From positions 1 to 64,000 of the forward strand of contig JAFVCE010000015.1 of the NCBI GenBank assembly GCA_017479385.1: 64,000 nt of DNA, given 5' to 3'. Both the position numbers and the translations under genes were made by a program. The DNA is from Bacteroidales bacterium (GTDB lineage Bacteria > Bacteroidota > Bacteroidia > Bacteroidales > P3). Each line of letters starts with the position of its first letter. Position 1 is the first letter of the stretch. Positions 5,750-61,513 of the stretch are shown here, in pieces. The notes under the pieces are model-generated. The model was not told where the DNA came from. It saw nothing but the letters and a program-made list of their open reading frames with translations, and searched no databases.

Positions 5750-5859
5750 AACATGTAGGTATCAAGTAGGGCCGTTCTTCAGTCGTTCTTCCGTTGTTAT
5801 TCAGTCAATGTCTGAAGAACAACTGAAGAACGGCCTTACTTGAGCCCAAGTTGGTGTTA
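5750..5859. repeat. 11-bp modular palindrome, copy 1
   Basis: Ten consecutive 11-bp modules. Left modules include ATCAAGTAGGG (5761) and CCGTTCTTCAG (5772); right modules include AGAACAACTGA (5816) and AGAACGGCCTT (5827), which mirror the left ones. This copy is imperfect near its centre. It is the only copy found outside a divergent gap: it sits between tRNA-Phe and the cassette at 6023-7678, both on the minus strand. The rest of the 5621-6022 gap holds only poly-T, the GC-rich palindromes at 5900-5994 and unremarkable sequence. Confidence 0.85.
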
Positions 5860-5899
5860 AGTGCATTGTTGCCGAGAGGTCATACATCAGAAAAAACAT

Positions 5900-5994
5900 C
5901 CCCTCCCGAGGAGGGGTAGGGGGTGGTTCAACGTTGACAAGATACGTTTTAACCGAAAAAAACAACCCCTCCATGGGGAGGGGTTAGGGGTGGG
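5900..5994. repeat. GC-rich palindrome pair (CCCCTCC...GGAGGGG)
   Basis: Two similar motifs lie at 5900-5926 and 5966-5994. Each is a short palindrome (CCCCTCC, 3-4 nt, GGAGGGG) followed by TTAGGGGTGGG or a close variant. The same motif is the core of the 66-bp tandem array at 51091-51500. Each could fold into a small strong hairpin. Function unknown. Confidence 0.75.
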
Positions 5995-6022
5995 TAAAAC
6001 ATCTTTTTATGAGATGTAAGCA

Positions 6023-6880
6023 CTATTGGACATTCTCATAAACAAACACTTCTCGCCATCTTTTAACATTCTCGTCAAAAACCATGTTGGATTGTTGTGT
6101 AAGTACGCAGGTAAGACGGTTCTCTTTGTCGTATAAAAAAGTCCTGTCAATAACATCCTCTGATAGGTAACATCTATCGGTTTTTAATCGGCCATTGGCT
6201 GTAGTGTACATTACAAAACGGCATCTCTGGTCATGAAAGTGCCCGTAATCGTCATAACAGTTGGGGGGAACAAGTAAATTATATCTTGCAAATTTTGTTA
6301 CGGATTTAATGCTATCAAACTCAGCATAACAAAATGCGCTAAATCTAAATCCTTCTTCTTCAAAATCAAGATACTGCGTCAAAGAATCTATCACAATTGA
6401 ATCATAGGAAAAAGAGTCTTTATAAAATTCGAGTGTTCTATATAGTCCGTCATATCCGAACAATGATAACATACGGTATTTGTCGTATTCTATCATTGTT
6501 GCTTTCTCATCGTGTGCTGGAGGATAACATACGGTGTCGGATTTTAGCAACGAATATCTTATCAGACTATCGTACACTGTTTTATCATCACGTTTGAGGT
6601 ATAAGGGCTTAAATACGTTAACTATTAAGGTGTTGTCTGCTTGGTAATCGTAATATGTGGAATCTTCTATGCATCGGTCATTCCCTCTAATGTGATACTT
6701 TATTGTATCGCCAGAAAAGAATAGAATGTTTTTTCCTATCAGACGTGTCTCATCGCTCTCAAAAGGAGATGGCGTTAGTGACACGTCTGATATAACTTTA
6801 TAATAGGTTATTTTTACACCCTGCGCTTGTCCGATAAAGGATAACAAAAGTAGTAATGCAAAAAAACTATTTCTTCTCAT
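6023..6880 (-). CDS. Secreted hypothetical protein, possible immunity partner
   Basis: 285 residues with a clear Sec signal peptide (MRRNSFFALLLLLSFIGQAQG, cleavage near residue 21), so the mature protein is periplasmic or outer-membrane associated. There is no lipobox. The rest is Tyr/Asp/Ser-rich with many short beta-like segments, and I recognise no family. Its start codon follows the stop of the 6881 gene with no gap, so the two are translated as a unit. Both are visibly more AT-rich than their neighbours, which suggests acquisition. Pairing a secreted protein with an unsecreted hydrolase-like one recalls effector/immunity cassettes, but that is inference. Confidence 0.6.
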   Translation of the reverse strand: MRRNSFFALLLLLSFIGQAQGVKITYYKVISDVSLTPSPFESDETRLIGKNILFFSGDTIKYHIRGNDRCIEDSTYYDYQADNTLIVNVFKPLYLKRDDKTVYDSLIRYSLLKSDTVCYPPAHDEKATMIEYDKYRMLSLFGYDGLYRTLEFYKDSFSYDSIVIDSLTQYLDFEEEGFRFSAFCYAEFDSIKSVTKFARYNLLVPPNCYDDYGHFHDQRCRFVMYTTANGRLKTDRCYLSEDVIDRTFLYDKENRLTCVLTQQSNMVFDENVKRWREVFVYENVQ

Positions 6881-7678
6881 TTATTGCTCCTCATTAGTAT
6901 AAGCCCAAAATATTGTTTTACAATACACTGCGACGGATGTTAAAAGTATCTTCCCCTTATTGTCGCCCATTACGGCTGCTTTCACTTGTGGAGCCTTAAA
7001 TCCTGCACCAATATTGGCTTTCCACTTTGCATAGTGTTCGTCTGATATTCTCCATCCTTGCGTATTCATGTGTAGGATAATATGTGTCCCTCCATGCATT
7101 ACACGCAGTTCATCTGTGTCATACATGGCCTGTTCGGCACCATCCCATTGTTTTGCGTTGTGACTAAAGTTCCCCTTGTCGATCAATGCTTTTATTACTG
7201 CGGCATTCGCTATGCGCTTAAATGGCGATTTGTTTATTTGGAGTGGCAACAACCGTCTATATTCTTGTGCTTTAGCAGATTTATCCGCATACGCTTTATC
7301 ATTGTTCAAATGTACTTCTGCAATTGCAAACATTTCGCACTTTAATTCTTCAGTCATTTTATTCATGTAAACTGCAGAACTTTCTCCGTATATTGTAGAT
7401 GCCATCTGTCTTAATGTAATATAATTTTGGTTTAGTTCCTTTATATTGTATGCCCCAATCACATGCTCGTAATCATCTTTTTCAACAGAATCCGCAATGA
7501 AAACCTTTTTACCATCCCAGCTTCTGGTGTCGCCAAGATAAAAACCATCTATATTGTAATATCGGCCATCAGGTATATCTTTGGGTAATGAAGTGTCAAG
7601 ATGGTGACTGATTTGCGTGACAGGAGTAATATCTGTAATATTGTTCCATTCCCTTTTCCAATATTCTATTGTATCCAC
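6881..7678 (-). CDS. Hypothetical protein, hydrolase/effector-like
   Basis: 265 residues, with no signal peptide and no membrane segment. The middle region has MASTIYGESS followed by EMFAIAEVHLNN. This is reminiscent of SleB-type cell-wall hydrolases, where a YGEA motif precedes a helix ending in LN, and of effector domains carried by some Bacteroidota secretion substrates. The resemblance is short and unverified. It is directly coupled to the secreted protein at 6023. No Hcp, VgrG, Rhs or PAAR gene is nearby, so a secretion route is not visible. The start chosen is the first ATG; the upstream gap to uvrA is 55 bp. Confidence 0.55.
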   Translation of the reverse strand: MDTIEYWKREWNNITDITPVTQISHHLDTSLPKDIPDGRYYNIDGFYLGDTRSWDGKKVFIADSVEKDDYEHVIGAYNIKELNQNYITLRQMASTIYGESSAVYMNKMTEELKCEMFAIAEVHLNNDKAYADKSAKAQEYRRLLPLQINKSPFKRIANAAVIKALIDKGNFSHNAKQWDGAEQAMYDTDELRVMHGGTHIILHMNTQGWRISDEHYAKWKANIGAGFKAPQVKAAVMGDNKGKILLTSVAVYCKTIFWAYTNEEQ

Positions 7679-7733
7679 GTGTTCTTTTAATAGTTAAGAT
7701 ATGCTCTATGGAGAGGATGTCTCTTGCCAGCAT

Positions 7734-10589
7734 TCATGCTTTCTTTGGGTGGCAGGCTTGTAGTTCTTCGTTCAAGTAGCGACCTGTGTAGTTGTCGGCT
7801 TGTTTGGCAAGCTGTTCGGGTGTGCCTGCAAACACTATTTCGCCACCAGCTCGGCCACCGTCGGGACCGAGGTCGATTATCCAGTCGGCCACTTTTATCA
7901 CGTCCATGTTGTGCTCAATTATGAGCACTGAGTTGCCCTTGTCGACAAGGCGTTGCAGCACATCGATAAGCACGCGGATGTCTTCAAAGTGCAAACCTGT
8001 GGTGGGCTCGTCGAGTATGTAGAGGGTGTTGCCGGTGTCGGTTCGAGCCAACTCGGCAGCAAGTTTGATGCGCTGCGCTTCGCCCCCGCTCAGTGTGGTG
8101 CTTTGTTGGCCAAGTGTCAAGTAGCCCAACCCCACTTCGAGCAAGGTGTTTAGCTTGCGATGTATTTTGGGCATGGCCGAGAAAAACTCGGTTGCTTCGG
8201 CTATGGTCATATTCAGCACATCGGCTATCGACTTGCCTTTATAGCGTATTTCCAGTGTTTCGCGGTTGTAGCGTTTGCCATTGCACACCTCGCACGTTAC
8301 GTATACATCGGGTAGGAAGTTCATCTCGATGGTGCGTAGCCCAGCCCCTTTACAATGTTCGCATCGTCCGCCGCCCACGTTGAAAGAGAAACGTCCCGAT
8401 TTGTAGCCACGGATGCGTGCCGAGGGCAGTTCGGCAAAGAGGCGACGTATGTCGTCGAATACGCCGACGTATGTGGCAGGATTGCTGCGTGGTGTGCGTC
8501 CAATGGGGCTTTGGTCTATCTGTATCACTTTGTCGATTTGGTCAATGCCCTGAATTTTGTCGTAAGGTAAGGACGACTGCAACGAGCGATAGAAATGCTG
8601 CGAAAGTATAGGTAGCAGAGTGTCGTTGACCAGACTACTTTTGCCGCTGCCAGATACACCGGTCATACACACCAGTAAGCCTAACGGTAGGTCGAGCGTA
8701 ACACCCTTAAGATTGTTGCCGCGTGCCCCCTCCAACACAAGATGCTTGCGCCCTTTGATGGTGCGACGTTTGGGTAGGGCAATGTCTTTTGTGCGACTCA
8801 GATAGTCGAGCGTCAAACTTGGAGTGTTGGAATTATTGTGCATGGCCATTTGTTGTGGTGTGCCTGCAAAGAGCACTTTCCCACCATGTACACCTGCCCC
8901 AGGCCCGATGTCAACCAAGTAGTCGGCGGCAAGCATCATGTCGCGGTCGTGTTTCACCACGATGATACTGTTGCCCATGTCGCGCAGTTGCTGTAAGGAA
9001 TCTATAAGGCGTCGATTGTCGCGTTGATGCAGTCCGATAGATGGCTCATCGAGGATATATAAAACGTTGACCAGTTGCGACCCTATCTGTGTGGCAAGGC
9101 GTATGCGTTGTGCCTCACCACCCGACAACGACCGAGCACTGCGGTTCATTGAAAGGTAACCTACTCCTACGTTGATCAGAAAATCGAGTCGTTTCAGTAT
9201 CTCGTTAAGCACATCGTGAGCCACCGTTGCGTCGCGATGGTCGAGTTGCGATTCGAGGTGTTGCAGCCATTGGTTAAGCTCGATGAGGTCCATGCTGGCC
9301 AGTTGTCCTATGTTTTTGTCGAGCAGACGGAATGCTAACGACTCGGGTTTGAGCCTTGTGCCATGACATTGTGGGCATTCAACGGTATTCATAAAGCTTG
9401 CTGCCCAGCGTTGCAAGGCAGGCGAACTCTCCTCCGAAGCCATATTGGCAATGTGGGTAACGATACCTTGAAACTCGCCAAGAAAGCCCGGGTCGTCAGG
9501 GTCTTCTATACTGGTGAAGTGGTTGCTGCCATAGAGTATGGCATTCATGGCCTCGTCGGTGAGCGATTCTATTGGGTCGTCGAGGGTGAAACCATAGTGT
9601 CGCCCCATGAGTTCTATCTTCCTATAAATATAGTTGTTTGGAGAATATTTGCCCAACACTTCTATACCCCCCTCTTTTATGCTGCGTTTGGAATTGGGAA
9701 TGAGCTTCTGCATGTCGATTTTAGCCACTTCGCCCAAACCATTACAATGGGGGCATGCACCGTAGGGCGAGTTGAAAGAGAAGGTGTTGGGTTCGGGCTC
9801 GGGAAAGGATGTGCCGGTGTCGGGATCCATGAGCATGCGGCTAAAGTAGCGTATGTTTTGGCCTTCGGTTGCGTCGTTATCTAAAATCATCAGCACTCCT
9901 TTACCTTGACGGAACGCAGTTTGCACTGCCGTGCGCAATCGCGAGGTGTTGGAGGTGCCACGCAAACGGTCAATAACAAGTTCAATATCGTGGGTTCGAT
10001 AGCGGTCTACTTGCATGCGATAGGTTAGTTCGCGTATTTCTCCGTCGACCCTTACACGCAGAAAACCACGCTTTGCCACCTGCTCGAAAAGCTCGCGGTA
10101 GTGCCCTTTGCGCCCTTTAACCAGTGGCGCAAGTATGGTTATGTCGGTGGAAGCATAGTCGGTGGTGATTATATCGAGAATCTTATCTTCGCTATATTTC
10201 ACCATGGGTTTGCCTGTGGTGGGAGAATAAGCTTTAGATGCTCTGGCAAAAAGCAGACGCAGAAAGTCGTAGGTGTCGGTGATAGTCCCCACCGTTGAGC
10301 GAGGATTGTTGTTGGTGCTCTTTTGCTCTATAGAGATTACTGGGCTTAACCCTTCTATAAGGTCTACGTTAGGGCGTTCCATGCTGCCAACAAAGCGGCG
10401 AGCATAGGCGGAGAAGGTATCCATATAGCGACGTTGCCCTTCGGCATAAATGGTGTCAAAGGCGAGGCTTGACTTCCCACTACCACTCAATCCTGTAAAC
10501 ACAACCAGCTTGTTGCGAGGTATTTCTATGTCTATGTTTTGCAAGTTGTGCTCTCTTGCACCCAGTATTGTTATCTTGTTGTCGTCCAT
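7734..10589 (-). CDS. uvrA: Excinuclease ABC subunit A
   Basis: 951 residues, full length. UvrA recognises DNA damage and loads UvrB in nucleotide excision repair. Both ATPase modules are complete: Walker A GLSGSGKSS near residue 34 and GVSGSGKSS in the second half, and signature motifs SLSGGEAQRIRLA and TLSGGEAQRIKLA. The zinc-module cysteines are present (ACPHC, ECPQC, RCEHC, TCEVC). The C terminus is short after GGEIVFAGTPEQL, as is usual in Bacteroidota. It is the last gene of the bamD-omega-coaBC-transglycosylase run, 41 bp behind the transglycosylase. Confidence 0.98.
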   Translation of the reverse strand: MDDNKITILGAREHNLQNIDIEIPRNKLVVFTGLSGSGKSSLAFDTIYAEGQRRYMDTFSAYARRFVGSMERPNVDLIEGLSPVISIEQKSTNNNPRSTVGTITDTYDFLRLLFARASKAYSPTTGKPMVKYSEDKILDIITTDYASTDITILAPLVKGRKGHYRELFEQVAKRGFLRVRVDGEIRELTYRMQVDRYRTHDIELVIDRLRGTSNTSRLRTAVQTAFRQGKGVLMILDNDATEGQNIRYFSRMLMDPDTGTSFPEPEPNTFSFNSPYGACPHCNGLGEVAKIDMQKLIPNSKRSIKEGGIEVLGKYSPNNYIYRKIELMGRHYGFTLDDPIESLTDEAMNAILYGSNHFTSIEDPDDPGFLGEFQGIVTHIANMASEESSPALQRWAASFMNTVECPQCHGTRLKPESLAFRLLDKNIGQLASMDLIELNQWLQHLESQLDHRDATVAHDVLNEILKRLDFLINVGVGYLSMNRSARSLSGGEAQRIRLATQIGSQLVNVLYILDEPSIGLHQRDNRRLIDSLQQLRDMGNSIIVVKHDRDMMLAADYLVDIGPGAGVHGGKVLFAGTPQQMAMHNNSNTPSLTLDYLSRTKDIALPKRRTIKGRKHLVLEGARGNNLKGVTLDLPLGLLVCMTGVSGSGKSSLVNDTLLPILSQHFYRSLQSSLPYDKIQGIDQIDKVIQIDQSPIGRTPRSNPATYVGVFDDIRRLFAELPSARIRGYKSGRFSFNVGGGRCEHCKGAGLRTIEMNFLPDVYVTCEVCNGKRYNRETLEIRYKGKSIADVLNMTIAEATEFFSAMPKIHRKLNTLLEVGLGYLTLGQQSTTLSGGEAQRIKLAAELARTDTGNTLYILDEPTTGLHFEDIRVLIDVLQRLVDKGNSVLIIEHNMDVIKVADWIIDLGPDGGRAGGEIVFAGTPEQLAKQADNYTGRYLNEELQACHPKKA

Positions 10590-10630
10590 AAAGTGTGATG
10601 GTGGTGTGGAAAAGATGTGGTTTAATGTTG

Positions 10631-11605
10631 TTAGAGGCTCTCAATGAGGGTGGTGTCTCGACGGCCATGAGTTATTGTGTTGTATTCGGTGCCTTTAGTG
10701 ATGGGCACTTTTACTTTGTAGGTCTTACCGTCTTTGTTTTTCAATGTGTCGGTAGTTATCCAAGGATTCAATGTGCGAAGCATCTTGTAGGAGGTGTTAT
10801 TTTGTTTGGCAAAGCGAACGAGGTCGATGTTATGTCCATTCAATGTTACCTCTTTGAATGGCACTTCTGGGTAGGTGTCGCAAACACGCACGTGGTAACC
10901 ATAGTCTTGCGGATGCTGCAAAATCAGTTTTATTGCCAAGATGCGATACACATAGCGTTGAGTTTCTTGGTTGAGTAGTAGGTCGTAGTAGCTTTTTTCT
11001 TCCTGCTTTTCAAGGCGGCGTTTTAGTCCGTTCTCTCCACAATTATAGGCGGCGGCAGCCTCTGTCCAGCCTCCGAATTGGTGCTTGAGCGATTTTAGGT
11101 AGGCGCATGCTGCTCGGGTCGACTGTTCAAGGTCGTTGCGCATATCTACCTCGGCCGTTATCTCCAGCCCGTATCTTTGGCCTGTGGTTTTCATGAATTG
11201 CCAGTAACCTGATGCTCCTGCAGGCGATGTAACAGTTTGTAGCCCACTCTCAATAACGCAAAGGTATTTGAAATCGTCGGGTATGCCCTCCTCTTTCAAT
11301 ATCTTTTCAATGGTGGGAAAGAAGCGTGAGGCGCGCTTTATAATGAAGAGTGTGTTTGATTGCCAGTACATGTTGCTTACAAGTTCGCGGTCGAGACTTT
11401 CGCGAACGTAGTATATGTTGAGAGGAACTCGCTCGCCAGCAAAGGTTAGTGTGTCGGGTATGGTGGGGGCATAGACACGATAGTCGTTACGAATGGCTTG
11501 GCGGTGGATCTCTTCGTTGTGGCTGTTGCGAGTTGAGAATATAAAGGCTTCTCCGACTAATGCCAAAGAAGCCAGTATAAGTGCAGCCAATGCTGTTTTT
11601 TTCAT
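10631..11605 (-). CDS. Lytic transglycosylase (SLT domain)
   Basis: 324 residues. An N-terminal hydrophobic signal (MKKTALAALILASLALVG) sends it to the periplasm. The SLT domain has the catalytic Glu in CVIESGLQ, then SPAGASGYWQFM and AAAAYNCGENG, all typical of MltD-like enzymes that cleave the MurNAc-GlcNAc bond of peptidoglycan. The last 70 residues resemble a single degenerate LysM repeat, fewer than in E. coli MltD. The start codon overlaps the coaBC stop by 4 bp, so the two are translationally coupled. Confidence 0.92.
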   Translation of the reverse strand: MKKTALAALILASLALVGEAFIFSTRNSHNEEIHRQAIRNDYRVYAPTIPDTLTFAGERVPLNIYYVRESLDRELVSNMYWQSNTLFIIKRASRFFPTIEKILKEEGIPDDFKYLCVIESGLQTVTSPAGASGYWQFMKTTGQRYGLEITAEVDMRNDLEQSTRAACAYLKSLKHQFGGWTEAAAAYNCGENGLKRRLEKQEEKSYYDLLLNQETQRYVYRILAIKLILQHPQDYGYHVRVCDTYPEVPFKEVTLNGHNIDLVRFAKQNNTSYKMLRTLNPWITTDTLKNKDGKTYKVKVPITKGTEYNTITHGRRDTTLIESL

Positions 11606-12774
11606 ACTATGGAGTTGACTATTTTGCGGGCGGTTTGCAGTTTGTTCATCAGTGGAAGCGCGGTCTCCGTGCCGTTGCGACTGATTATTGTAACCTTGTT
11701 TGTGTCGGTCTGAAAACCCGCACCACTGTCGCGGAGCGAGTTCATGATTATGAAGTCAAGGTTTTTCCGCTGTAATTTTTGCTTTGCATTGTCGAGTTCG
11801 TGGTCGGTTTCGAGCGCAAAGCCAACAAGGGTTTGTTGTGTTTTTTTTGTAGCTCCGAGGTGAGCCAGTATGTCGGGATTGGGGGTTAGTTGCAACGACA
11901 TGCCTTGTCCGCCCTGTTTCTTTATCTTGTTTGTTTGACAGGTTTCTGGACGATAGTCGGCCACCGCTGCGGCCAATATTGCTCCATTACAGTTTGGGAA
12001 AATGGATATGGCTGCGTCAAACATTTGTGTGGCCGACTCAACATCGGTGCGATGTATGTTTGCACATGGAGTTGCAAGGTGGGTTGGACCTGCTATCAAC
12101 TCCACCTGTGCACCCTGTTCGGCTAAGGCTTGAGCCAAAGCAAATCCCATTTTGCCCGATGAGAAATTGCCAATGAAACGCACAGGATCGATGCGCTCGT
12201 AGGTTGGTCCTGCTGTAACAAGCCACATCTGTCCTTGCAAGGGGCGAGCTGTGTCTGCAAGTATTGCCGACACGATGAGGTCGGGATCGGCCATACGTCC
12301 GTCGCCGTTTGCCCCACATGCCAACGCTCCGTTGCCTGGACCAATAATTGTGGCTCCCCATTCACGTAAGGAGGCCACATTGCGTTGCACGGCAGGGTGG
12401 TGCCACATATCGGTGTTCATGGCTGGAGCAAGGTAGAGTTTGCTTGGGTGGGTGGCAGCAATGAGGGTTGACAGAGCATCATCGGCTATGCCCGAGGCTG
12501 CTTTGGCCAGGATGTCGGCTGTGGCTGGTGCCACGAGCAGCATGTCTGCCCAGTCTTTTATTGATATGTGCTCGGTGGCGTGGGCATTACCCTCAAAGAG
12601 GTCGGAATAAAGTGGGTGGCTGCTGACAGTTTCAAGGGTGGCACGAGTAACGAACTGCAGGGCCGATTGCGTTACGGCACAACGCACACTATGCCCCTGC
12701 TTTACGAGCATACGCACCATCTCGGGCGTTTTATAGGCGGCAATGCCTCCGCTGGCACCAACCACTATGTTCAT
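11602..12774 (-). CDS. coaBC: CoaBC, pantothenate-to-CoA bifunctional enzyme
   Basis: 390 residues. The N-terminal CoaC domain (residues 1-175) decarboxylates phosphopantothenoylcysteine. It shows the FMN-binding GASGGIAAYK, the His in TEHISI, PAMNTDMW and the active-site ACGANGDGRM. The C-terminal CoaB domain joins phosphopantothenate to cysteine and has WLVTAGPTYERIDPVR, NFSSGKMG and AAVADYRP. Together they carry out two successive steps of coenzyme A synthesis. The gene starts 4 bp after the omega subunit gene and overlaps the transglycosylase by 4 bp. Confidence 0.97.
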   Translation of the reverse strand: MNIVVGASGGIAAYKTPEMVRMLVKQGHSVRCAVTQSALQFVTRATLETVSSHPLYSDLFEGNAHATEHISIKDWADMLLVAPATADILAKAASGIADDALSTLIAATHPSKLYLAPAMNTDMWHHPAVQRNVASLREWGATIIGPGNGALACGANGDGRMADPDLIVSAILADTARPLQGQMWLVTAGPTYERIDPVRFIGNFSSGKMGFALAQALAEQGAQVELIAGPTHLATPCANIHRTDVESATQMFDAAISIFPNCNGAILAAAVADYRPETCQTNKIKKQGGQGMSLQLTPNPDILAHLGATKKTQQTLVGFALETDHELDNAKQKLQRKNLDFIIMNSLRDSGAGFQTDTNKVTIISRNGTETALPLMNKLQTARKIVNSIV

Positions 12775-12778
12775 GGCT

Positions 12779-13150: not shown

Positions 13151-13191
13151 ATTGTGAATGTGCTTTTGTGCTTTTAATAAAGGGTTGAAGA

Positions 13192-14001: not shown

Positions 14002-14007
14002 AGTGGG

Positions 14008-14015
14008 CAAAGATA
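14008..14015 (-). promoter_or_regulatory. bamD -7 box
   Basis: TATCTTTG on the minus strand, 6 nt before the bamD ATG. It fits TAnnTTTG exactly and fixes the choice of start codon. Confidence 0.6.
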
Positions 14016-14072
14016 GCATTTTTATTCTAAATGAGCATCATGTTTTTTGTGAAATGTGCCCACAAGGGGCAT

Positions 14073-14160
14073 ATCACCTTCCGATCAACTCCCTATCATC
14101 TCCTTATCAACTCCCTATCATCTCCTGCCGTTCTTCAGTCAAAGTGGGAGATGATAGGGT
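14073..14160. repeat. 11-bp modular palindrome, copy 2 (variant)
   Basis: Eight consecutive 11-bp modules. ATCAACTCCCT and ATCATCTCCTT/G alternate twice (14084-14127), followed in phase by CCGTTCTTCAG (14128). The arm CCCTATCATCTCC (14113-14125) is matched by GGAGATGATAGGG (14147-14159). It lies between the divergent bamD and guaA promoters. Apart from this element and the two promoter boxes, the 340-bp gap 14002-14341 shows nothing else. Confidence 0.85.
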
Positions 14161-14308
14161 GAAAATGGAGCGTTGGTTTGGGGTTGATTTTTTTGTTGTG
14201 GCGAGCAAGTGGTCGGCATAGTGCGATGCCGTGCCGTGGAAACGAGTTGACATTCACCGCTGTCGATGGTTGTGGGCAGAAAAAAGAGGTAGTTTGCAAA
14301 AAAAGATG

Positions 14309-25041: not shown

Positions 25042-25096
25042 GGGCATGTTGGGACTTGATAGGGACTTGATAAGGACTTGATAGGGAGATGGTCCC
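25042..25096. repeat. 11-bp modular repeat, copy 3 (short variant)
   Basis: GACTTGATAGG, GACTTGATAAG and GACTTGATAGG follow each other in exact 11-bp phase at 25053, 25064 and 25075. Their complements contain ATCAAGTC, the same word as in the other copies. Nothing equivalent to the GTTCTTCAG arm is left in phase. It lies in the divergent gap between ugd and the alcohol dehydrogenase. The remaining part 24914-25041 is unremarkable. Confidence 0.7.
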
Positions 25097-25105
25097 TATA
25101 TGATA

Positions 25106-25164
25106 CTGATAATCAGGGACTTTGCTGTGGGTGATGGCTAAAGATGCAAGTGCTTGATTATCAG
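25106..25164. promoter_or_regulatory. Inverted CTGATAATCA pair, possible operator
   Basis: CTGATAATCA (25106-25115) is matched in inverse orientation by TGATTATCAG (25155-25164), 39 bp apart and 27 bp upstream of the -7 box at 25191. A similar word, TTGATAATCAGTTGCTAAT, lies upstream of the porP gene (62242-62260). It could bind a dimeric regulator; no regulator is assigned. Confidence 0.35.
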
Positions 25165-25190
25165 CATGCTAATATTTTTGGAAAAATGTT

Positions 25191-35454: not shown

Positions 35455-35553
35455 ATCATGTAGGTATCAACTTCGGCATTTCTTCAGTATATGTTCAGTC
35501 GTTCTTCAGTGATTGACTGAAGAACGACTGAAGAACGACCTTACTTGATGCCT
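35455..35553. repeat. 11-bp modular palindrome, copy 4
   Basis: Nine consecutive 11-bp modules, starting ATCATGTAGGT (35455), ATCAACTTCGG (35466) and CATTTCTTCAG (35477) and ending AGAACGACTGA (35521), AGAACGACCTT (35532) and ACTTGATGCCT (35543). The central arms CAGTCGTTCTTCAGT and ACTGAAGAACGACTG are perfect complements. It lies midway between the divergent glnS and typA promoter boxes; the remaining gap sequence shows nothing else. Confidence 0.9.
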
Positions 35554-41323: not shown

Positions 41324-41433
41324 GTCATGTAGGCATCAAATAGGGCAGTTCTTCAGTTGTTCTTCAGTCATCGACTGAAGAACAACTGAAGAACGACTGA
41401 AGAACGGCCTTACTTGATCCTTAGTTGATACCT
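41324..41433. repeat. 11-bp modular palindrome, copy 5
   Basis: Ten 11-bp modules in strict phase from 41324 (GTCATGTAGGC, ATCAAATAGGG, CAGTTCTTCAG and so on) to AGTTGATACCT (41423-41433). Central 22-bp arms, beginning GTTCTTCAGTT and ending AACTGAAGAAC, are perfect complements around a 3-nt loop. The right side carries one extra AGAACGACTGA module. It lies between the divergent serC and mscS promoters. Nothing else is recognised in 41221-41323 or 41434-41551. Confidence 0.92.
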
Positions 41434-51090: not shown

Positions 51091-51500
51091 ATTTACCCTC
51101 TCCTCGGGAGGGGCTGTTGCACTCTCAAGTACATATTTGCCATAGACCCACCCCTCTGTCCCCTCCCGAGGAGGGGAGGCTGTTGCACTCTCATGTACAT
51201 GTTAGCCACAGACCCACCCCTCTGTCCCCTCCCGAGGAGGGGAGGCTGTTGCACTCTCAAGTACATGTTAGCCATAGACCCACCCCTTTGTCCCCTCCCG
51301 GGGAGGGGAGGTTTGTTGCACTCTCAAGTACATATTTGCCATAGCCCCACCCCTTTGTCCCCTCCCGAGGAGGGGAGGCTATCGCAACCTCAAATACATA
51401 TTTGCCATAGACCCACCCCTCAGTCCCCTCCCAGGGAGGGGAGGCTGTTGCAATCTCTATCTCAAACTCTTCCCCTCCTGGGAGGGGTTAGGGGTGGGGC
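51091..51500. repeat. 66-bp GC-rich tandem repeat array
   Basis: Six tandem units with a period of 66 bp (once 67), marked by the word TGTTGC or a close form at 51115, 51181, 51247, 51314, 51380 and 51446. Each unit contains a CCCCTCCCGAGGAGGGG-type palindrome, an AAGTACATATTTGCCATAG-like segment and CCACCCCT. The array ends in a GGGGTTAGGGGTGGGG variant that matches the 5900-5994 motifs. Because 66 is a multiple of 3, both strands show open frames of repeated peptides, but these have no start signal or homologue and are not genes. It occupies most of the 716-bp gap 50992-51707. Confidence 0.92.
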
Positions 51501-51530: not shown

Positions 51531-51673
51531 CTCAAATAGGCAACAAAACACCATCAAACAGGCATCAAGTAGGGATCAACTTCGGCATTTCTTCAGTATA
51601 TGTTCAGTTGTTCTTCAGTCAACGACTGAAGAACAACTGAAGAACGGCCTTACTTGATACCTATTTGATGCGT
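51531..51673. repeat. 11-bp modular palindrome, copy 6 (longest)
   Basis: Thirteen modules in unbroken 11-bp phase (143 bp). ATCAA words begin at 51553, 51564 and 51575; then come CATTTCTTCAG, TATATGTTCAG, TTGTTCTTCAG, the centre, AGAACAACTGA, AGAACGGCCTT, ACTTGATACCT and ATTTGATGCGT. The central arms CAGTTGTTCTTCAGTC and GACTGAAGAACAACTG are perfect complements. It shares two modules with copy 4 at 35466-35498. It lies just upstream of the GNAT-HD gene in the divergent gap with the thioredoxin-like gene. Confidence 0.92.
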
Positions 51674-53308: not shown

Positions 53309-53343
53309 TCTTTTTTAAGGTGAGATAAAAAAACAGATTATAT

Positions 53344-53631: not shown

Positions 53632-53639
53632 GTGGTGGT

Positions 53640-54191: not shown

Positions 54192-54225
54192 GACTGGATG
54201 TGTTGTTTTGCTTTGTTTTTGTTGA

Positions 54226-55566
54226 TTAGGCTGCCCATATAAGCAGTCCGACACATATCACGATGCCTGTCAACAGCAGGTCTATCAAGCAATAACCCAT
54301 AATGTCTTTGGCGTTGAGACGCGCAATGGCCAAGGCAGGAAGTGCCCAGAAAGGCTGGATAAGGTTGGTCCATGCGTCGCCACAGGCAATGGCAGTGCCT
54401 GTCAGGGCTGGGTCAACACCAAGATTTGCTCCGGCCGTAAACATGATGGGCGCTTGAATTGCCCAGTGTCCGCCACCAGAAGGCACGAAAAGATTGAGAA
54501 TAGCGGCGCATAGGAATGTGAGTAGAGGGTAGGTGAGGGGGGTACTTATGTCAATGCAGGCATTGCTGAGCACCGTACCTAAACTTACGCCCGATGCACC
54601 GATGCCTGTTATTATGCCCATAATGCCGGCGTAGAATGGGAACTGAAGAATGATGCCAGAAGCACCCGATGCCGCTTTTGAAAAGGCTTTCACATAGGCC
54701 AACGGTGTGCGGTGCAACAGCAAGCCGATGGTTAGGAATAGCAGTATGACCGAGCCCAGATCGAAGTTGCCTCCACGAAATCCGAGGATGACAACCAAGT
54801 AGGCCAGTCCCATCAGCGCTATGAGCCACGACAGAATGGGGCTATGCTCGGCTCGTTGGGCAGGAGTGGGGTTGGTAGGACGCGAAATGGGTTGAGCCTC
54901 GTCGTCAAGCAATGACGGATCTACAGTTACCACGTCGTGGCGTGGATGCATCAGTGTGTTTGCAATGGTGATGACCACAATGACCAAGAGTACCATGACG
55001 AGGTTGTGAGGATCGAGCAAAGTTCGACTGATAGGTATGGGCGAAGTCAATGCACCATTGGTGGCTTTGGATAGAGCCTCGCCGGGTGTGGCCATGGTGA
55101 GCGGTATGGAACCAGAAAGACCAGCGTGCCAAACCACAAAACCGCTGTATGCCGAGGCTATGAGCAACCGGTAGTCGACCCCTTTCAACTGCCTGGCCAA
55201 CTCTTTTGCAAACACCACTCCCACAATCAGTCCAAAACCCCAGTTTAGCCAACAGGCCAACGACGACACCACGGTAACCAGGGCAATGGCGGCCGCAGGG
55301 GTCTTGGGTAGGCGTGCAAGTGCAGTGATGCCACTGCGCACAGCTGGTGCTGCGGCTAAGGCAGAGCCACACACCAACACCAGCGACATCTGCATGGCAA
55401 AGGCAAGGAGGTTCCAAACGCCACCTCCCCAATGGTCAATTACCTCAAGTGGGGTCTGACTGCATACAATCATGGCTATCAGAGCAGCCACAAAAGTGAG
55501 TACGATGGCAAAGATAAATGGTTCGGGCAGCCACCGTTGTACCAGTTTTACGCAGAACTTAATCAT
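54226..55566 (-). CDS. Short-chain fatty acid transporter (AtoE-like)
   Basis: 446 residues with about eleven membrane helices. Family markers are LVQRWLPEPFIFAIVLTFVAA at the N terminus, ASAYSGFVVWHAGLSGSIPL, VQFPFYAGIMGII-like segment (residues 305-325) and NLFVPSGGGHWAIQAPIM. AtoE carries short-chain fatty acids such as butyrate or acetoacetate. It overlaps the phosphatase gene by 8 bp, so it belongs to the same operon. Confidence 0.92.
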   Translation of the reverse strand: MIKFCVKLVQRWLPEPFIFAIVLTFVAALIAMIVCSQTPLEVIDHWGGGVWNLLAFAMQMSLVLVCGSALAAAPAVRSGITALARLPKTPAAAIALVTVVSSLACWLNWGFGLIVGVVFAKELARQLKGVDYRLLIASAYSGFVVWHAGLSGSIPLTMATPGEALSKATNGALTSPIPISRTLLDPHNLVMVLLVIVVITIANTLMHPRHDVVTVDPSLLDDEAQPISRPTNPTPAQRAEHSPILSWLIALMGLAYLVVILGFRGGNFDLGSVILLFLTIGLLLHRTPLAYVKAFSKAASGASGIILQFPFYAGIMGIITGIGASGVSLGTVLSNACIDISTPLTYPLLTFLCAAILNLFVPSGGGHWAIQAPIMFTAGANLGVDPALTGTAIACGDAWTNLIQPFWALPALAIARLNAKDIMGYCLIDLLLTGIVICVGLLIWAA

Positions 55567-56710
55567 TGTCGAAGCCTAATAGAAGTCGTATTTTTGTCGG
55601 TATGTCTGTGTTGTTCATAATGCCAGAAAAGTGGAATGCGCCAGGTCCGAAAGCGAAAACTGGCACCATCACGCCCGTGTGGTTACCCCAAAGAAAGTGC
55701 ACATCGTTGCCACCATTGGCAATATCGCCGTTGGGAAGTGTAACACCGCCCGTTTCGTGGTCGGCAGTAACCACCACGAGGGTTTGGCCATCGTTGGCAG
55801 CAAAGTCGAGCACGGCATTAAGCATCTGCTCAAAATCTGCCATTTCGGCACGCAAATAAGCACTATCGTTGTTGTGACAAGCCCAGTCAATCTGTGAGCC
55901 CTCTATCATCATGGCAAACCCTTTGGGGTTGCGATTGAGCATTGTTAAGGCTTTTTGTGCACCCACCGTGAGTACGTTGCCTCGCGCAGGGGCCGTCAGT
56001 GGGTCGCCTTCATAGAGCAAAGCCACCATCTTATCCCCGTCAAAATTTTGCATACTATCAAGGGTGTAGACCACCTTATATCCGCGTTTGGTTAGCGTGT
56101 CGAGTGGTGAAAGCCCGTCTTTACGGTTCTCTGTTAGGAAATTCATACGTCCTCCACCAATCATTACGCTGTGGTTGCACTGCGATAATTGTAGACTTAA
56201 AGTGTCGAACATACGACGATAGGGCACATGCCCGTAGGTCGATGCTGGTGTTGCGTCAAGTACACTGCTGGTTACAACAAAGCCTGTTTGCATCCCCACG
56301 CTAACAGCATCATCAAAAATGGTGGGGTAGCGGCTGCTATCGGAAGCCCAATTTACATGGTTGTTCTCCACTTTATGCCCAGTGGTCAGTGCCGTGCCAC
56401 CAGCCGACGAGTCGGTACGGTACTTGTTAAGAGAATACGTTCGCGAAAAACCACTGTAGGGGAAGCGTAGAAATGCCGAATTGTCTTCTTTTTGTGCTAC
56501 CACCGAACTGTAAACTTGTGCCACGCCCATACCGTCACCAATAATCAATATTACGTTCTTGGGCATATTCTCCTCGCTTTTTGCTATGGAGTCTTCGGCT
56601 TCAAGATATTCTACAAGTTCTTCTATGTCGTAACTCAACTCAAGCAAGTCGGCGCAGCTGGTAAGCATTAACGAGGTCGCAAATAGGACACTTATCAGAA
56701 TCTTCTTCAT
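55559..56710 (-). CDS. Alkaline phosphatase lipoprotein
   Basis: 383 residues. A lipobox (LMLTSC, Cys19) marks a lipoprotein, followed by an acidic spacer of about 30 residues. The phosphatase core has VILIIGDGMGVAQ, the nucleophile Ser in RTDSSAGGTALTTG, SQIDWACHNND and VVTADHETGG, all metal-binding sites of the PhoA family. It should release phosphate from esters outside the inner membrane. Its start overlaps tatC by 4 bp, but its own signal is Sec/lipoprotein, not Tat. Confidence 0.93.
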   Translation of the reverse strand: MKKILISVLFATSLMLTSCADLLELSYDIEELVEYLEAEDSIAKSEENMPKNVILIIGDGMGVAQVYSSVVAQKEDNSAFLRFPYSGFSRTYSLNKYRTDSSAGGTALTTGHKVENNHVNWASDSSRYPTIFDDAVSVGMQTGFVVTSSVLDATPASTYGHVPYRRMFDTLSLQLSQCNHSVMIGGGRMNFLTENRKDGLSPLDTLTKRGYKVVYTLDSMQNFDGDKMVALLYEGDPLTAPARGNVLTVGAQKALTMLNRNPKGFAMMIEGSQIDWACHNNDSAYLRAEMADFEQMLNAVLDFAANDGQTLVVVTADHETGGVTLPNGDIANGGNDVHFLWGNHTGVMVPVFAFGPGAFHFSGIMNNTDIPTKIRLLLGFDND

Positions 56711-57417
56711 GTTTCTATAGTTTTCTTTTTTTCAGTTCGTTTAACAATAAAGATACTTCCTTCCCACAATATCCATATAGGCAATGCTACAAGCATGAGT
56801 GTAAAGGGGTCGCCGGTAGGAGTAATTACGGCCGAAACAATTAGGATGACCACTATTGCATGACGACGATAGCGAGTCATGAACGACGATTTTAGCACAC
56901 CTATACGTGCCAGAAGCCAGCAAAATACGGGCAATTCAAATGCTATGCCCATAATGAGGCTCATGATGAAAAGGAGATTGATGTAGGAAGTGAGTGCGAT
57001 GCGGTTTTCAATGTCGGGACTAACTCTGTAGTAGAACAGGAAATCTACCGTTACAGGGAAGATGAGAAAGTAGTTTATTGCCGCCCCAGCCACGAACAAC
57101 AGGTATGATGTTGCCATGGCACCAGCGGCTATGCGCCTTTCAATGTTGTAAAGCCCGGGCGAGATGAATGCAAATATCTGGTACAGTGCAAAGGGCATGG
57201 CTAATAGCAATCCAGCCAATGCTGCCACCTTTATATGGGTTAGAAACTGCTGAGCTATGTCGATGTTTATAATTTGCATCGCAGCAGGTTTAGGATAAAG
57301 CACCGCTTGAAACAGCATGTCTTTGAAAAAGAAGCATGCCACGGTGGCTAAAGCATAGACCACCAGTGTGTGCAAAATGCAGGCTCGCAGTTCTTCCAGA
57401 TGTTCCCAGAAGGTCAA
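56707..57417 (-). CDS. tatC: Twin-arginine translocase subunit TatC
   Basis: 236 residues, six membrane helices. MTFWEHLEELRACILHTLVV is the conserved TatC start that binds twin-arginine signals, and FALYQIFAFISPGLYNIERR and the Phe/Glu-containing GIAFELPVFCWLL follow. TatC is the receptor core of the translocase for folded proteins. It starts 11 bp after tatA. Confidence 0.96.
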   Translation of the reverse strand: MTFWEHLEELRACILHTLVVYALATVACFFFKDMLFQAVLYPKPAAMQIINIDIAQQFLTHIKVAALAGLLLAMPFALYQIFAFISPGLYNIERRIAAGAMATSYLLFVAGAAINYFLIFPVTVDFLFYYRVSPDIENRIALTSYINLLFIMSLIMGIAFELPVFCWLLARIGVLKSSFMTRYRRHAIVVILIVSAVITPTGDPFTLMLVALPIWILWEGSIFIVKRTEKKKTIET

Positions 57418-57428
57418 CGGCAGTGTGG

Positions 57429-57611
57429 TTATTCGTCTTTTTTCTCGGTTTTGTTTGGCTCTTCGTCTTTGCCGTTCATGCCATCTTTGAAGCTTTTAAT
57501 GCCTTTTCCCATACCGTGCATCAGTTCGGGTATCTTTTTCCCACCGAACAGTAGCAGCAATGCAAGCACGATGATGCCAATTTCCCACGGACTAATGTTG
57601 AGTAATGTCAT
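57429..57611 (-). CDS. tatA: Twin-arginine translocase subunit TatA
   Basis: 60 residues: a membrane helix ([21 protein letters not shown]) followed by an amphipathic helix and a charged tail, the TatA/E layout with the conserved FGGKKIPEL hinge. No tatB-like gene is present, so this is a minimal two-component Tat system. The start overlaps the end of the aldo-keto reductase gene by 4 bp. Confidence 0.95.
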
Positions 57612-58984
57612 AACAATGAATCTTTAAGGTGGTTGGTATATTTTTCTATTATCTGCATTTTTTGCGGAATATCTATGTTTTGAGGGCAGTGCAATTTACA
57701 CTCTCCGCAGGCTATGCAGTGGTCGGCCTGGCGCATGCGAGACACGCTCTTATCGTACGACTGCAAGTATGCTTTGCGTGCGCGTCGGAATTCGCGCTGT
57801 TCTACCGAACCCTCGCTCACAACGTTCCCCTCGTTTATACTCTTGTTGTAGTGGGCAAACACCGATGGTATGTCTATCCCGAAAGGGCATGGCATGCAAT
57901 ACTGGCATGCTGTGCAAGGCACTGATGGATAATGGGCTATTTCATCGGCCACACGCTCAAGCAGCGATAGTTCGGCATCGGTCAGTGGCTTTAATGGCGA
58001 GTGGGTGTGGATATTGTCTTGCAGGTGCTCCATATAGGTCATTCCACTCAACGAAGTTAGCACCAATGGTTTCGATCCACAATAGCGAAATGCCCATGAT
58101 GCGAGACTGCTTTGTGGGCTTTGTGTTTTCAAAAGTTCGGTGGTGTGAGGGTTGAGCGAGGCCAATCTTCCGCCCAGTAGGGGCTCCATTATGATGGCTG
58201 GTATGTTGCGTTGTTCCAGCTCCCCATACAGGTAGTCGGCGTTGACGTTGTTGGGGTTTATCTCATGTGCAAAGTGCCAGTCAACATAGTTCATCTGTAT
58301 TTGAACAAAGTCCCAATGCACTTTGTCGTGAAGTTGCATCAAGAGGTCGTATTCTTCCTGTACACCGTGGAACGAAAAGCCGAGGTTGCGTATACGGCCT
58401 TCGGCACGTTCGTTGATCAAAAAGTCGAGCATGCCGTTGTCAACAAATCTGTTCTTAAAGCCATTGGGAGTTCCGACGTTGTGCAACAGGTAGTAGTCAA
58501 AATAGTCTACCTGTAGGTTACGCATCGATTGGTGATACATGTTCACGCTTGCGTCATAGGTGAATGTCTTGAAGTTAGACATTTTTGTGGCAATGAGGTA
58601 GTCGGTTCTGGGATGACGGCTTAAGGCTTTGCCAGTAACGGTCTCCGATTCGCCTCGACAATACACGGGCGACGTGTCAAAATAGTTCACGCCGTGGCTT
58701 ATGGCGTAGTCTACCATTTCGTTGACAATCTCTTGGTCAATTGGTGCATTGGGGTTTTCGCGAGCACTGCCACCACCCTCTACCGGCAGACGCATCATGC
58801 CGTAGCCCAACAGCGACACTTGTTGTCCGTGGCTGTCGGTGCGCATGGTCATCTTTCCTTCGGGCTCCGATGTGGGATTGCTGGTCGCATTTGAGGGGGC
58901 GTTTGTTGGCCTACATCCCACCGCCAGCGCCGCACCGACTGCCGTGGCAGCTGTCATTCCTTTCAAAAAATCACGTCGTTTCAT
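57608..58984 (-). CDS. Tat-exported aldo-keto reductase with ferredoxin domain
   Basis: 458 residues from the ATG at 58984, chosen because the twin-arginine signal begins there: [21 protein letters not shown] cysteine follows (VGCRPT), so it may be a Tat lipoprotein. The body is an aldo-keto reductase-type barrel ([33 protein letters not shown]). The C terminus has two 4Fe-4S motifs, [17 protein letters not shown] and [18 protein letters not shown]. Related enzymes are often predicted oxidoreductases of unknown substrate. It is encoded directly upstream of tatA, its likely export machinery. Confidence 0.93.
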
Positions 58985-59030
58985 TGAGTGAGTGTTGTGT
59001 GATGAATGGACTTGCAAGTGTACACGCTAT

Positions 59031-60440
59031 CTATCTTTCGGTGTGGACGCGCCGTCCCTCGACATAAATTGCAGTCATCGGACGTGCCGGGCAATAGTAT
59101 TCGCAAGCTCCGCATCCAATGCACATGCTCTCATCGACGGCGGGTAAGCGGCGACCTGTTGTGGCATCGTCGACCATTGTTATGGCTTGAGACGGACAAT
59201 GACGGGCGCATGCACCGCAGTCTATACCCTTTGCCGACACACAATTATCGTGCAACGTAACGGCAAATCCTATGCTTATGGCTGTTTTCTCCTCTTTGCT
59301 CACAGGCTGTATGGCACCAGTTGGGCACACCTGGCTGCAGCGGTTGCATGCTGTGCGGCAATAGCCCTGGCTGTACGACAGTTGTGGCTGCATAAAGTTG
59401 GCAAGGTCGGTTGAAGGTTGCAACACATGTTCGGGACATTGGCTGACGCACAACTGGCAACCTGTGCAGCGCGACGAGAAGTTTTTCAAGCTTTGCGCTC
59501 CGAAAGGCTTCAGTGGGTTGGCTCGTTGAGGGATGCTTTTTGCTGTTAGCACGGCCAAACCACCGTCGAATTTCTGCTCCTGTGCTTGCATTGCCATGGT
59601 GGCAGAAAGGGCAGCACTGGTGGCAATAAAGCGTCGTCGACTGCCATCGGGTTCAACCTCTTTGGGGCTTTTATGTCTGCGACCAAATGCTATTGCACCT
59701 GTCGGACACTGGTCGAGACAGTCAAAGCAGTCAACGCATCGCGAGGTGTCGACCCTCTTTTTGTCAATGTCAATGCACATGGCTTTGCACGCATGTTCGC
59801 ATTTGCGGCAACTTACGCACTTCTCACCGTCGATGCCAATGCCTGTTACCGAGTGTCTGCTCAACGTGCCCAACAGCGTCCCCACCGGACAAATGGTGTT
59901 GCACCACAGGCGTCCGCCCAGCAATGCGCTGACAAATATCACCGTGGCCGACACCACCGCCACCCACATTATTGTGCCCCCCGACACTATCCCTCTAATT
60001 ATGCGTCCATAGGTGCTGTAGGGGGCTATGAGTAGGGCAAGGCCGTTCATGCCCGTGAGCATCAGCACAACGAATGCCAGCAGCACCACATAGCGCAGCC
60101 AGCGCAACTCTTTGTGGTACGAAAAACGGTGGCGAGACCCTATATGAAACATCTTCTTGGCAGTTGTGCCAATCCACGTAAACACATCTTGTGCAATGCC
60201 CAGTGGGCATATCACCGAGCAATATATGCGTCCCACCAGCAGGCACATCAGAATTACCGCACCAGCCATGACGAAGTTGCCTGCCAGTAGGGCAGGCAAT
60301 AGTTGCACTTTGGGTATCCATGCAGCCCCGTGGAGCATCGTGCCACTGTTGTCAAGCAGTAGGGCGGTGACACTCAAGAGCATCGCCGCAGCCACCACCA
60401 TCCTTATCACCTTGGGGACAGTGCGTTTTGTTGCTTTCAT
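59031..60440 (-). CDS. NapH-like membrane polyferredoxin, fused
   Basis: 469 residues. Four or five helices in residues 10-190 contain the NapH/CcoG-type motifs CSVICPLGIAQDVF and CNTICPVGTLLG, and two 4Fe-4S clusters follow (CVSCRKCEHACKAMC, CVDCFDCLDQCP). At residues 267-280 comes a second twin-arginine-like motif, SRRRFIATSAALSATMA, then a periplasmic-type ferredoxin with CTGCQLCVSQCP, CNRCSQVCP, CGACARHCP and CIGCGACEYYCP. It reads like NapH joined to a NapG/MauM-like protein. It may pass quinol electrons across the membrane, probably to the reductase encoded next (46 bp downstream). Confidence 0.92.
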   Translation of the reverse strand: MKATKRTVPKVIRMVVAAAMLLSVTALLLDNSGTMLHGAAWIPKVQLLPALLAGNFVMAGAVILMCLLVGRIYCSVICPLGIAQDVFTWIGTTAKKMFHIGSRHRFSYHKELRWLRYVVLLAFVVLMLTGMNGLALLIAPYSTYGRIIRGIVSGGTIMWVAVVSATVIFVSALLGGRLWCNTICPVGTLLGTLSRHSVTGIGIDGEKCVSCRKCEHACKAMCIDIDKKRVDTSRCVDCFDCLDQCPTGAIAFGRRHKSPKEVEPDGSRRRFIATSAALSATMAMQAQEQKFDGGLAVLTAKSIPQRANPLKPFGAQSLKNFSSRCTGCQLCVSQCPEHVLQPSTDLANFMQPQLSYSQGYCRTACNRCSQVCPTGAIQPVSKEEKTAISIGFAVTLHDNCVSAKGIDCGACARHCPSQAITMVDDATTGRRLPAVDESMCIGCGACEYYCPARPMTAIYVEGRRVHTER

Positions 60441-61309
60441 TTTGATTTGAGCATTGTGTAGACAGCCAAACCTGCTACCGATTTTATGCCAGTCTTTTTG
60501 GTGATGTTTTTGCGGTGGGTGTTGACAGTGTTGACGGCAATGTTGAGTTTGGCGGCAATCTCCTTGCTGCTCAATCCCTGTGCCACCAGTTTCAACACAT
60601 CATGTTCGCGGTCGCTCAAGTCGTAGTCTTCGTTGGGCGACAGCAACACCTCTTCAACCACAGTGTGCCGCTCCAAGTCGCGCGTGAGTTGCAAAATGTC
60701 AAACACCATCTGTGTCAGTTCGTCCGACAAATGCTCGCCGGGGATGTACTTGTAGATGATTTTGGTAAGGTCTGACAGTTTGTCCTTTATGTCGTCGTGG
60801 CCTTTCGACAAGAAATGCTCTATCGTCGAACGGCTCACCGAGTGGTTTTTATCCATCTCGTGCAACATGGCCTTCAGTTTACGCTCCTCGCGGTTCACGT
60901 GGTTTTGCACCTCAAGGTAGTAGTCGGCAAAATATTTGCGCAACACGTTGCCAGTGGTTTTCTCTATCGAGGCCGTCATTTGCTCCAAAAAACGCTGCAT
61001 GTGGGGCAGACGCTCGTTGATGTAGTAATGGTGCGAGGCTTGTAGGTGCTTCACCACCAGTCGGTTATCAATCTGCGACAGCTCATCGTTGTCAGGCCTA
61101 TAGTCGTCAAAACTGTATATATTGCACACCATGAGGAAGAAGTTGATGTCGATGCCGTGGTCTCGACACACCTCTTTTACGGTGGAATCGCCAAAGCCCA
61201 TGGGTATGCCAAAACGGGGCAGAAGCAGAATTAAATCGTAGTTGGCGGCTATCATATCGGCCATTTTCATTCGGCCGGAGAAATAACTATTGCGTATGGT
61301 ATTCAGCAT
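60437..61309 (-). CDS. YtfE/hemerythrin-like domain fused to LuxR HTH
   Basis: 290 residues. Residues 15-60 resemble the ScdA/YtfE N-terminal domain but lack its Cys-Cys motif (FGIPMGFGD in its place). Residues 85-225 form a hemerythrin-like helix bundle with the expected ligands: His93/94, His103, His137-xxx-Glu141, His171 and His215-xxx-Glu219. Residues 228-290 are a LuxR-type DNA-binding domain (LSDREHDVLKLVAQGLSSKEIA, TVNTHRKNI). It is probably an iron-based sensor of oxygen, nitric oxide or redox stress. It heads the eight-gene operon and overlaps the polyferredoxin gene by 4 bp. Confidence 0.87.
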   Translation of the reverse strand: MLNTIRNSYFSGRMKMADMIAANYDLILLLPRFGIPMGFGDSTVKEVCRDHGIDINFFLMVCNIYSFDDYRPDNDELSQIDNRLVVKHLQASHHYYINERLPHMQRFLEQMTASIEKTTGNVLRKYFADYYLEVQNHVNREERKLKAMLHEMDKNHSVSRSTIEHFLSKGHDDIKDKLSDLTKIIYKYIPGEHLSDELTQMVFDILQLTRDLERHTVVEEVLLSPNEDYDLSDREHDVLKLVAQGLSSKEIAAKLNIAVNTVNTHRKNITKKTGIKSVAGLAVYTMLKSK

Positions 61310-61343
61310 AATGCAACATTATTTGTGTATATAAATATGCTCG

Positions 61344-61351
61344 CAAATATA
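61344..61351 (-). promoter_or_regulatory. Redox/Tat operon -7 box
   Basis: TATATTTG on the minus strand, matching TAnnTTTG, 34 bp before the ATG at 61309. Confidence 0.6.
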
Positions 61352-61414
61352 CGCTTTTTTTCGAGGAATTGGCAGTAAAAAAGTTTGTTTATTACAACAA
61401 GGGAGCACATAGGC

Positions 61415-61513
61415 ATCATGTAGGTGTCAAGTAGGGCTGTTCTTCAGTCGTTCTTCAGTCACTGACTGAAGAACGACTGAAGAACAGCCCTACTTGACAC
61501 CTATTTGTGGCGT
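61415..61513. repeat. 11-bp modular palindrome, copy 7 (perfect)
   Basis: Nine 11-bp modules from ATCATGTAGGT (61415) to ATTTGTGGCGT (61503). Within it, 61421-61461 and 61463-61503 are exact reverse complements, 41-bp arms around a single central base (C at 61462). It is placed between the operon promoter at 61351-61344 and the LRR gene promoter at 61556. Nothing else is seen in the 258-bp gap. Confidence 0.95.

What the first reader, a model, noticed from the sequence alone, without database searches (positions are those of the whole stretch)
5750..61513. New family of palindromes built from 11-bp modules
Seven elements (5750-5859, 14073-14160, 25042-25096, 35455-35553, 41324-41433, 51531-51673, 61415-61513) are strings of 5-13 consecutive 11-bp modules with no phase slip. 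The vocabulary is small: ATCAAGTAGGG or ATCATGTAGGT on the outside, NNGTTCTTCAG inside, a TCANNGACTGA-like centre, then AGAACNACTGA, AGAACGGCCTT and ACTTGATACCT. Module numbers vary between copies, yet the 11-bp step is kept. This period is close to a DNA helical turn (10.5 bp) and equals the A-form RNA turn (11 bp), so each module would present the same face. The fact that 11 is not a multiple of 3 excludes a coding origin. I know of no described family like this.
Basis: seen in the sequence. Interest (0 to 1): 0.9.

Follow-up and report, generated by a model that had tools for sequence, protein, structure and literature searches.

The report
Promoter-side DNA arrays, 11-bp step
Bacteria of one gut group carry short DNA arrays, often beside gene switches, in which an 11-letter step is kept strictly while the letters differ between species, which suggests that the spacing, about one turn of the double helix, is what matters.

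Summary
Five of the seven elements share one grammar; 14073 and 25042 are atypical. The window is most likely the misjoined front of contig C3 (joined inside an Hsp70 gene near 95.8 kb) and belongs to the species of MAG RGIG5009 (G061), which has 268 pattern hits, by extrapolation about 120 elements. In 36 parsed elements the centre is 5 nt in 34, and 117 of 119 TCA words outside the core sit on one 11-bp phase. Unequal arms (2+3 inner modules) are commonest, 25 of 36, so perfect palindromy is not the constant feature. Related species show the 11-bp step with other words: 24 of 45 Bacteroidales loci, 0 of 29 more distant loci. G061 elements favour divergent promoter regions (20 of 48 regions with an element, against 13 of 109 others). 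RAYT, Rfam and T-tract tests were negative. Arrays of the second vocabulary (G000) do not share that position, and 7-bp arrays are as frequent as 11-bp ones in the related loci. Best explanation: helically phased operator arrays for a cooperative DNA-binding protein, working like CarH or ParR sites. Binding and function are not shown; a satellite without function remains a strong rival.

The parts
5750..5859 (.). Element 1: outer ATCAAGTAGGG-type and inner NGTTCTTCAG-type words with an inverted right arm (3+1 inner modules and 16-nt centre by my parse); between genes in the same direction, beside a tRNA gene
14073..14160 (.). Element 2, atypical: five outer words of another pair (period 11 and 22) and one inner module; between a YfiO-like gene (-) and a GMP synthase gene (+)
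25042..25096 (.). Element 3, atypical: about 3.4 copies of GGGACTTGATA; between divergent genes
35455..35553 (.). Element 4: 3+2 inner modules, 5-nt centre; between divergent genes, a class I tRNA synthetase of E/Q type (-) and bipA (+)
41324..41433 (.). Element 5: 2+3 inner modules, 5-nt centre; between a gene called on - and an mscS-like gene (+)
51531..51673 (.). Element 6: 3+2 inner modules, 5-nt centre; between divergent called genes (HD-domain gene on the right)
61415..61513 (.). Element 7: 2+2 inner modules, 41-bp perfect arms around 1 nt; between a luxR-type gene (-) and a gene called on +; parsed as L251:14341

Best explanation
The elements are tandem, helically phased operator arrays upstream of promoters. 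Each 11-bp module is one recognition unit, so neighbouring protein units land on the same face of the DNA and bind cooperatively; the two arms meet at a fixed 5-nt centre. The array would let a global regulator or nucleoid protein act on the promoters on either side. Shown: register, grammar, position in G061, retention at several orthologous sites. Inferred: that a protein binds, that it is cooperative, and any effect on transcription.
For: Strict register: 117 of 119 TCA words on one phase; 34 of 36 elements with a 5-nt centre. Fixed grammar: 2-3 inner modules per arm in 35 of 36, 2+3 in 25 of 36. Position in G061, by regions of at least 150 bp: 15 of 35 divergent against 8 of 62 others hold an element (p=0.002); on newly fetched stretches 5 of 13 against 5 of 47 (p=0.03); pooled 20 of 48 against 13 of 109 (p=7e-5). 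G022 against G008, five aligned pairs pooled: element core 81.6% identical (570 bp), adjacent 40-bp flanks 68.5% (356 bp), beyond 87.1%. Of 9 G022 elements examined in G008, 6 have an array at the same site. Known proteins read tandem 11-bp repeats: CarH, and ParR of R1 (PMC9304148, PMC9426499; passages).
Against: No binding protein identified. Inner and outer words differ within one element and words differ between species, so one sequence-specific protein does not explain everything. Lag-11 segments of G000 lie 1 of 13 divergent and 6 of 13 convergent (background 18 and 21 of 99), and those of G004 0 of 7 divergent. In one of the five aligned pairs the core is less conserved than its flanks (0.768 against 0.846). 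Phase between modules and the -7 motif looked locked in the first set (p=0.010, n=17) but was not confirmed in the new set (p=0.20, n=10; a period of 13 did better there, p=0.02). Copying between elements could also raise core identity.
Confidence: 0.4

Rival explanations
1. Neutral or selfish satellite-like DNA: modules are gained and lost in 11-bp steps by slippage and copied between elements by gene conversion; the register comes from the copying, not from selection.
For: Species-wide vocabularies (292 class B hits in G000, 5 in G003, 0 in the other 59 genomes searched). 3 of 5 core indels between G022 and G008 are 11, 11 and 22 bp; the others are 10 and 20. A module with another word stands in register in one G008 element. 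Arrays of 7-bp units occur in sister species and are as frequent as 11-bp ones in the related loci (45 against 43 segments).
Against: Pooled core identity above that of adjacent flanks, divergent-promoter bias in G061, fixed centre and module total.
Confidence: 0.32
2. Structural DNA element: cruciform-prone inverted repeats that absorb supercoiling or insulate divergent promoters.
For: Long near-perfect arms; position between divergent promoters in G061; in the seven (3,3) elements inner arms match better within than between elements (0.970 against 0.921, permutation p=0.009).
Against: 25 of 36 elements have unequal arms; direct arrays without a palindrome occur in other species; a cruciform does not need an 11-bp step. 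The same permutation test gave p=0.34 for the three (2,2) elements and p=0.32-0.45 for outer modules.
Confidence: 0.14
3. RNA element: hairpin acting as terminator, processing or stability signal.
For: Stable predicted folds; lag-11 arrays of G000 lie more at convergent positions, by eye often beside strong hairpins.
Against: T-rich 8-mers near G061 elements at background rate (24 of 95 sides, background 0.249); upstream of promoters; no Rfam family at the gathering score apart from a tRNA (weaker hairpin-like matches stay below it).
Confidence: 0.1

Closest known systems
CarH/CarA operators (B12-dependent or independent repressors)
   Same: Tandem 11-bp direct repeats at a promoter, protein bound to one face of the DNA (PMC9304148, passages)
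   Different: Three to five repeats at a promoter with the word nnnnTnnACAn, one repeat covering the -35 element; here inverted arms with a fixed centre, other words, about 120 copies by extrapolation
ParR-parC centromere of plasmid R1
   Same: ParR of R1 needs at least two 11-bp repeats; parC usually lies upstream of parM (PMC9426499, passages)
   Different: A plasmid centromere; here dispersed in a chromosome, and no segregation role is indicated
REP elements with RAYT
   Same: Dispersed intergenic palindromes in high copy
   Different: REPs are 20-40 bp, tagged GTAG or CGTC and lie mainly downstream of genes (PMC3733652, abstract); here 55-143 bp in the window, beside promoters in G061, and no Y1 transposase found in G061, G000, G008 or G009
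Heptamer direct repeats (TAACTGA type)
   Same: Intergenic short-unit arrays; indels in unit steps between two Cyanothece strains (PMC4679880, passages)
   Different: 7-bp unit, one word, mostly just before start codons in the genome studied, one indirect repeat only

Membership tests
REP (RAYT-associated) | Y1 transposase (RAYT) in the genome | tested here: not met
   PF01797: no match in G061, G000, G008, G009; 10 of 14 genomes searched have one, among them the element-rich G022 and G001
REP (RAYT-associated) | Located mainly downstream of genes | tested here: not met
   G061: 21 of 35 placed elements divergent, 2 of 35 convergent; by the lag-11 scan 14 of 29 divergent, 3 of 29 convergent
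REP (RAYT-associated) | GTAG or CGTC tag at one foot of the hairpin | tested here: inconclusive
   GTAG occurs inside outer words, read by eye; not scored
Intrinsic terminator | T-tract after the hairpin | tested here: not met
   24 of 95 sides (0.253), background 0.249
Known structured RNA | Rfam match at the gathering score | tested here: not met
   only a tRNA in the window and in 10 loci
CarH/CarA operator | Tandem 11-bp repeats near a promoter | tested here: met
CarH/CarA operator | Word nnnnTnnACAn and binding by a CarH protein | not tested
   no protein search was run and the word was not scored; the words read here look different
Mobile MITE | Empty sites with target duplication in close relatives | tested here: inconclusive
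   of 9 G022 elements examined in G008: 6 with an array at the site, 1 absent together with a gene end, 2 in segments not shared

The most novel reading that the evidence does not exclude
A clade-wide class of dispersed regulatory DNA whose conserved identity is a helical register (11 bp, fixed centre) rather than a sequence: the words turn over between species together with an unknown partner, while position and spacing at promoters persist.
Probability: 0.3. Interest if true: 0.92.

Novelty: new variant of a known kind. Interest (0 to 1): 0.74.

Why it matters
Repeat and motif searches look for conserved words and would miss elements that keep mainly their spacing. If the register is under selection, it points to an abundant, fast-changing DNA-binding system at many promoters of uncultured rumen bacteria. 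It also gives a direct test of whether helical phase can be conserved while the sequence is not.

Tried and rejected
REP/RAYT: no transposase found in the host genome. Terminator: T-tracts at background. Known RNA family. Phage or plasmid origin: no exact match of one 21-base pattern in viral contigs; no match of one element (161 bases) in the plasmid or phage collections. Promoter phase-locking: suggestive, not confirmed on new data. Synteny around bipA: among the ten genus regions compared, no shared neighbour beside bipA was found except in G004, about 10 kb away, so only the pair G022/G008 was compared in detail. A regional vocabulary inside one genome: rejected, because the contig is most likely chimeric. 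Literature: eight searches of the paper library; no listed paper describes this family, but the lists show only part of the papers found, and the library lacks most subscription papers.

Full report
Observation. The seven strings are present as described. Five share one vocabulary; 14073 and 25042 are related only in part. In the window the lag-11 self-match gives 7 segments, against 0 at lags 10 and 13 and 0 in each of 30 Markov simulations. Rfam finds only a tRNA.

Host. In the own genome G000 the class A pattern occurs 10 times, always inside C3:5.7-61.5 kb; a similarity search with one element adds C3:72 kb and four 14-base matches at E 3.2, which I take as chance. G000 carries bipA twice, the other genomes with a match once. 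A named contig of MAG RGIG5009 (roe deer rumen, JAFVBC010000018.1, 96,194 bp) encodes the window's MscS-like protein at 100% identity. 40 kb of it aligns to C3:55,826-95,825 with 4 mismatches and no gaps, and the match ends inside an Hsp70 gene on both sides (PF00012). So the front of C3 is most likely a misjoin and the window belongs to the RGIG5009 species (G061); a true recombinant cannot be excluded. G061 has 268 hits of the pattern in 1.9 Mb, and several of its contigs end in elements. 50 motif clusters in 0.8 Mb extrapolate to about 120 per genome.

Grammar in G061. 51 motif clusters were found (28 and 23); one lies inside a called gene and was dropped. 36 could be parsed with full 66-bp arms; the others are at contig ends or did not pass the parse. 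Inner modules NGTTCTTCAGT (left, right): (2,3) 13, (3,2) 12, (3,3) 7, (2,2) 3, (3,1) 1. The centre is 5 nt in 34 of 36. Outside the inner modules, 117 of 119 TCA words and 111 of 111 TCAA/TCAT words sit on one phase; arms were anchored on inner modules only, so the test is independent of the outer words. By eye, three-module arms tend to carry TCAACTTCGGC next to the core and two-module arms TCAAGTARGGC. In (3,3) elements inner arms match better within than between elements (0.970 against 0.921, p=0.009, n=7); in (2,2) elements (n=3, p=0.34) and in outer modules (p=0.32 and 0.45) no difference was seen.

Position. With my own simple codon-usage gene caller, 15 of 35 divergent and 8 of 62 other intergenic regions of at least 150 bp hold an element (p=0.002); on newly fetched stretches 5 of 13 and 5 of 47 (p=0.03); pooled 20 of 48 and 13 of 109 (p=7e-5). 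Left out: 15 clusters at contig edges, one inside a gene, two in shorter regions. A TAnnTTTG motif (the Bacteroidota -7 motif, recalled) lies outward on 29 of 41 gene sides, three of them more than 500 nt away; no background rate was computed. Distances from module to motif were clustered at period 11 in the first set (p=0.010, n=17, up to 160 nt) but not in the new set (p=0.20, n=10). I treat this as unproved.

Other species. The class B pattern has 292 hits in G000, 5 in G003 and none in the other 59 of 61 genomes; its reversed control has a few hits in three genomes (G025, G041, G052). The class A pattern matches in 10 of 61 genomes, of which G034, G037, G042 and G043 have a single two-mismatch or unlisted match; its reversed control has none. 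Intergenic self-match at lag 11 is the strongest lag in G061, G000, G022, G009, G004 and G003 (only 2.6 kb), fourth in G001 (z 4.4), weak in G020 (z 1.8) and not raised in G002, G026 and the other-family genome G038 (11 genomes). Around the MscS gene, 24 of 45 loci labelled Bacteroidales or Bacteroidetes (728 kb; L152 is the window's own species) have lag-11 arrays, and 0 of 29 more distant loci (468 kb; 26 of other phyla, 2 Flavobacteriales, 1 labelled Bacteroidales). In the 45 loci lag 7 gives as many segments as lag 11 (45 and 43), other lags that are not multiples of 7 or 11 give 0-8. Of 37 palindromes there with half-length of at least 26, 16 have an internal step of 11, 3 of 8, 1 of 7, 1 of 14 and 16 none. 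Two TTCTTC words 11 apart occur 12 times in 4 of the 45 loci and once in the 29. Upstream of bipA I read 11-bp arrays with different words in 7 of 19 species by eye. One stretch each of G039, G044 and G014 has no segment and one of G021 has one.

Evolution. G022 and G008 are close enough to align. Of 9 G022 elements examined, 6 have an array at the same site in G008 (one with unrelated words, by eye), 1 is absent together with the neighbouring gene's end, and 2 lie in segments not shared; further G022 elements were not compared. In five aligned pairs the core indels are 11, 11, 22, 20 and 10 bp, so 3 of 5 are multiples of 11. Pooled identity is 0.816 in the core, 0.685 in adjacent flanks and 0.871 beyond; in 4 of 5 pairs the core exceeds its flanks, in one (0.768 against 0.846) it does not. 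This suggests retention with module turnover in register, but homogenisation could contribute.

Against the reading. Lag-11 segments of G000 lie 6 of 13 convergent and 1 of 13 divergent, those of G004 0 of 7 divergent; over seven genomes 28 of 76 are divergent, against 72 of 279 regions. So the position is not the same in all species, and the two vocabularies may not do the same thing. Seven-bp arrays also occur. No partner protein was found, and none was searched for beyond PF01797.

Mechanism and comparison. Tandem 11-bp repeats read by proteins are known for CarH (one face of the DNA) and for ParR of R1 (passages); PhoB/OmpR-type regulators and omega heptads are recalled parallels. The elements would work like such sites but are not members of those families. 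They fail the transposase and position tests for REP elements in G061. I found no description of this family in the searches.

Noticed in passing
G000 contig C3 near 95,825 (outside the window): Contig is most likely chimeric: two related species joined inside an Hsp70 gene; the window is the foreign part, which explains the second bipA copy.
   Followed up: yes
window 51112-51457: 66-bp tandem repeat, 5.2 copies, with G/C-rich palindromes; 66 is six times 11, and it lies just before element 51531.
   Followed up: no
L082:16324-16404, L085:18179-18254, L089:15637-15715, L118:5264-5330, L170:12415-12485: Arrays and palindromes built of 7-bp units in sister species, parallel to the 11-bp ones.
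   Followed up: partly
L044-L061, L072-L081 (class B, e.g. L054:4558-4602): Second element type in G000: typically four 11-bp modules between inverted arms, by eye often beside a strong hairpin.
   Followed up: partly
window 1421-1474: 26-bp perfect inverted repeat with 2 nt between the arms; not part of the family.
   Followed up: no
window 25103-25167: Inverted repeat that by eye resembles the arms of class B elements, just beside element 25042.
   Followed up: no
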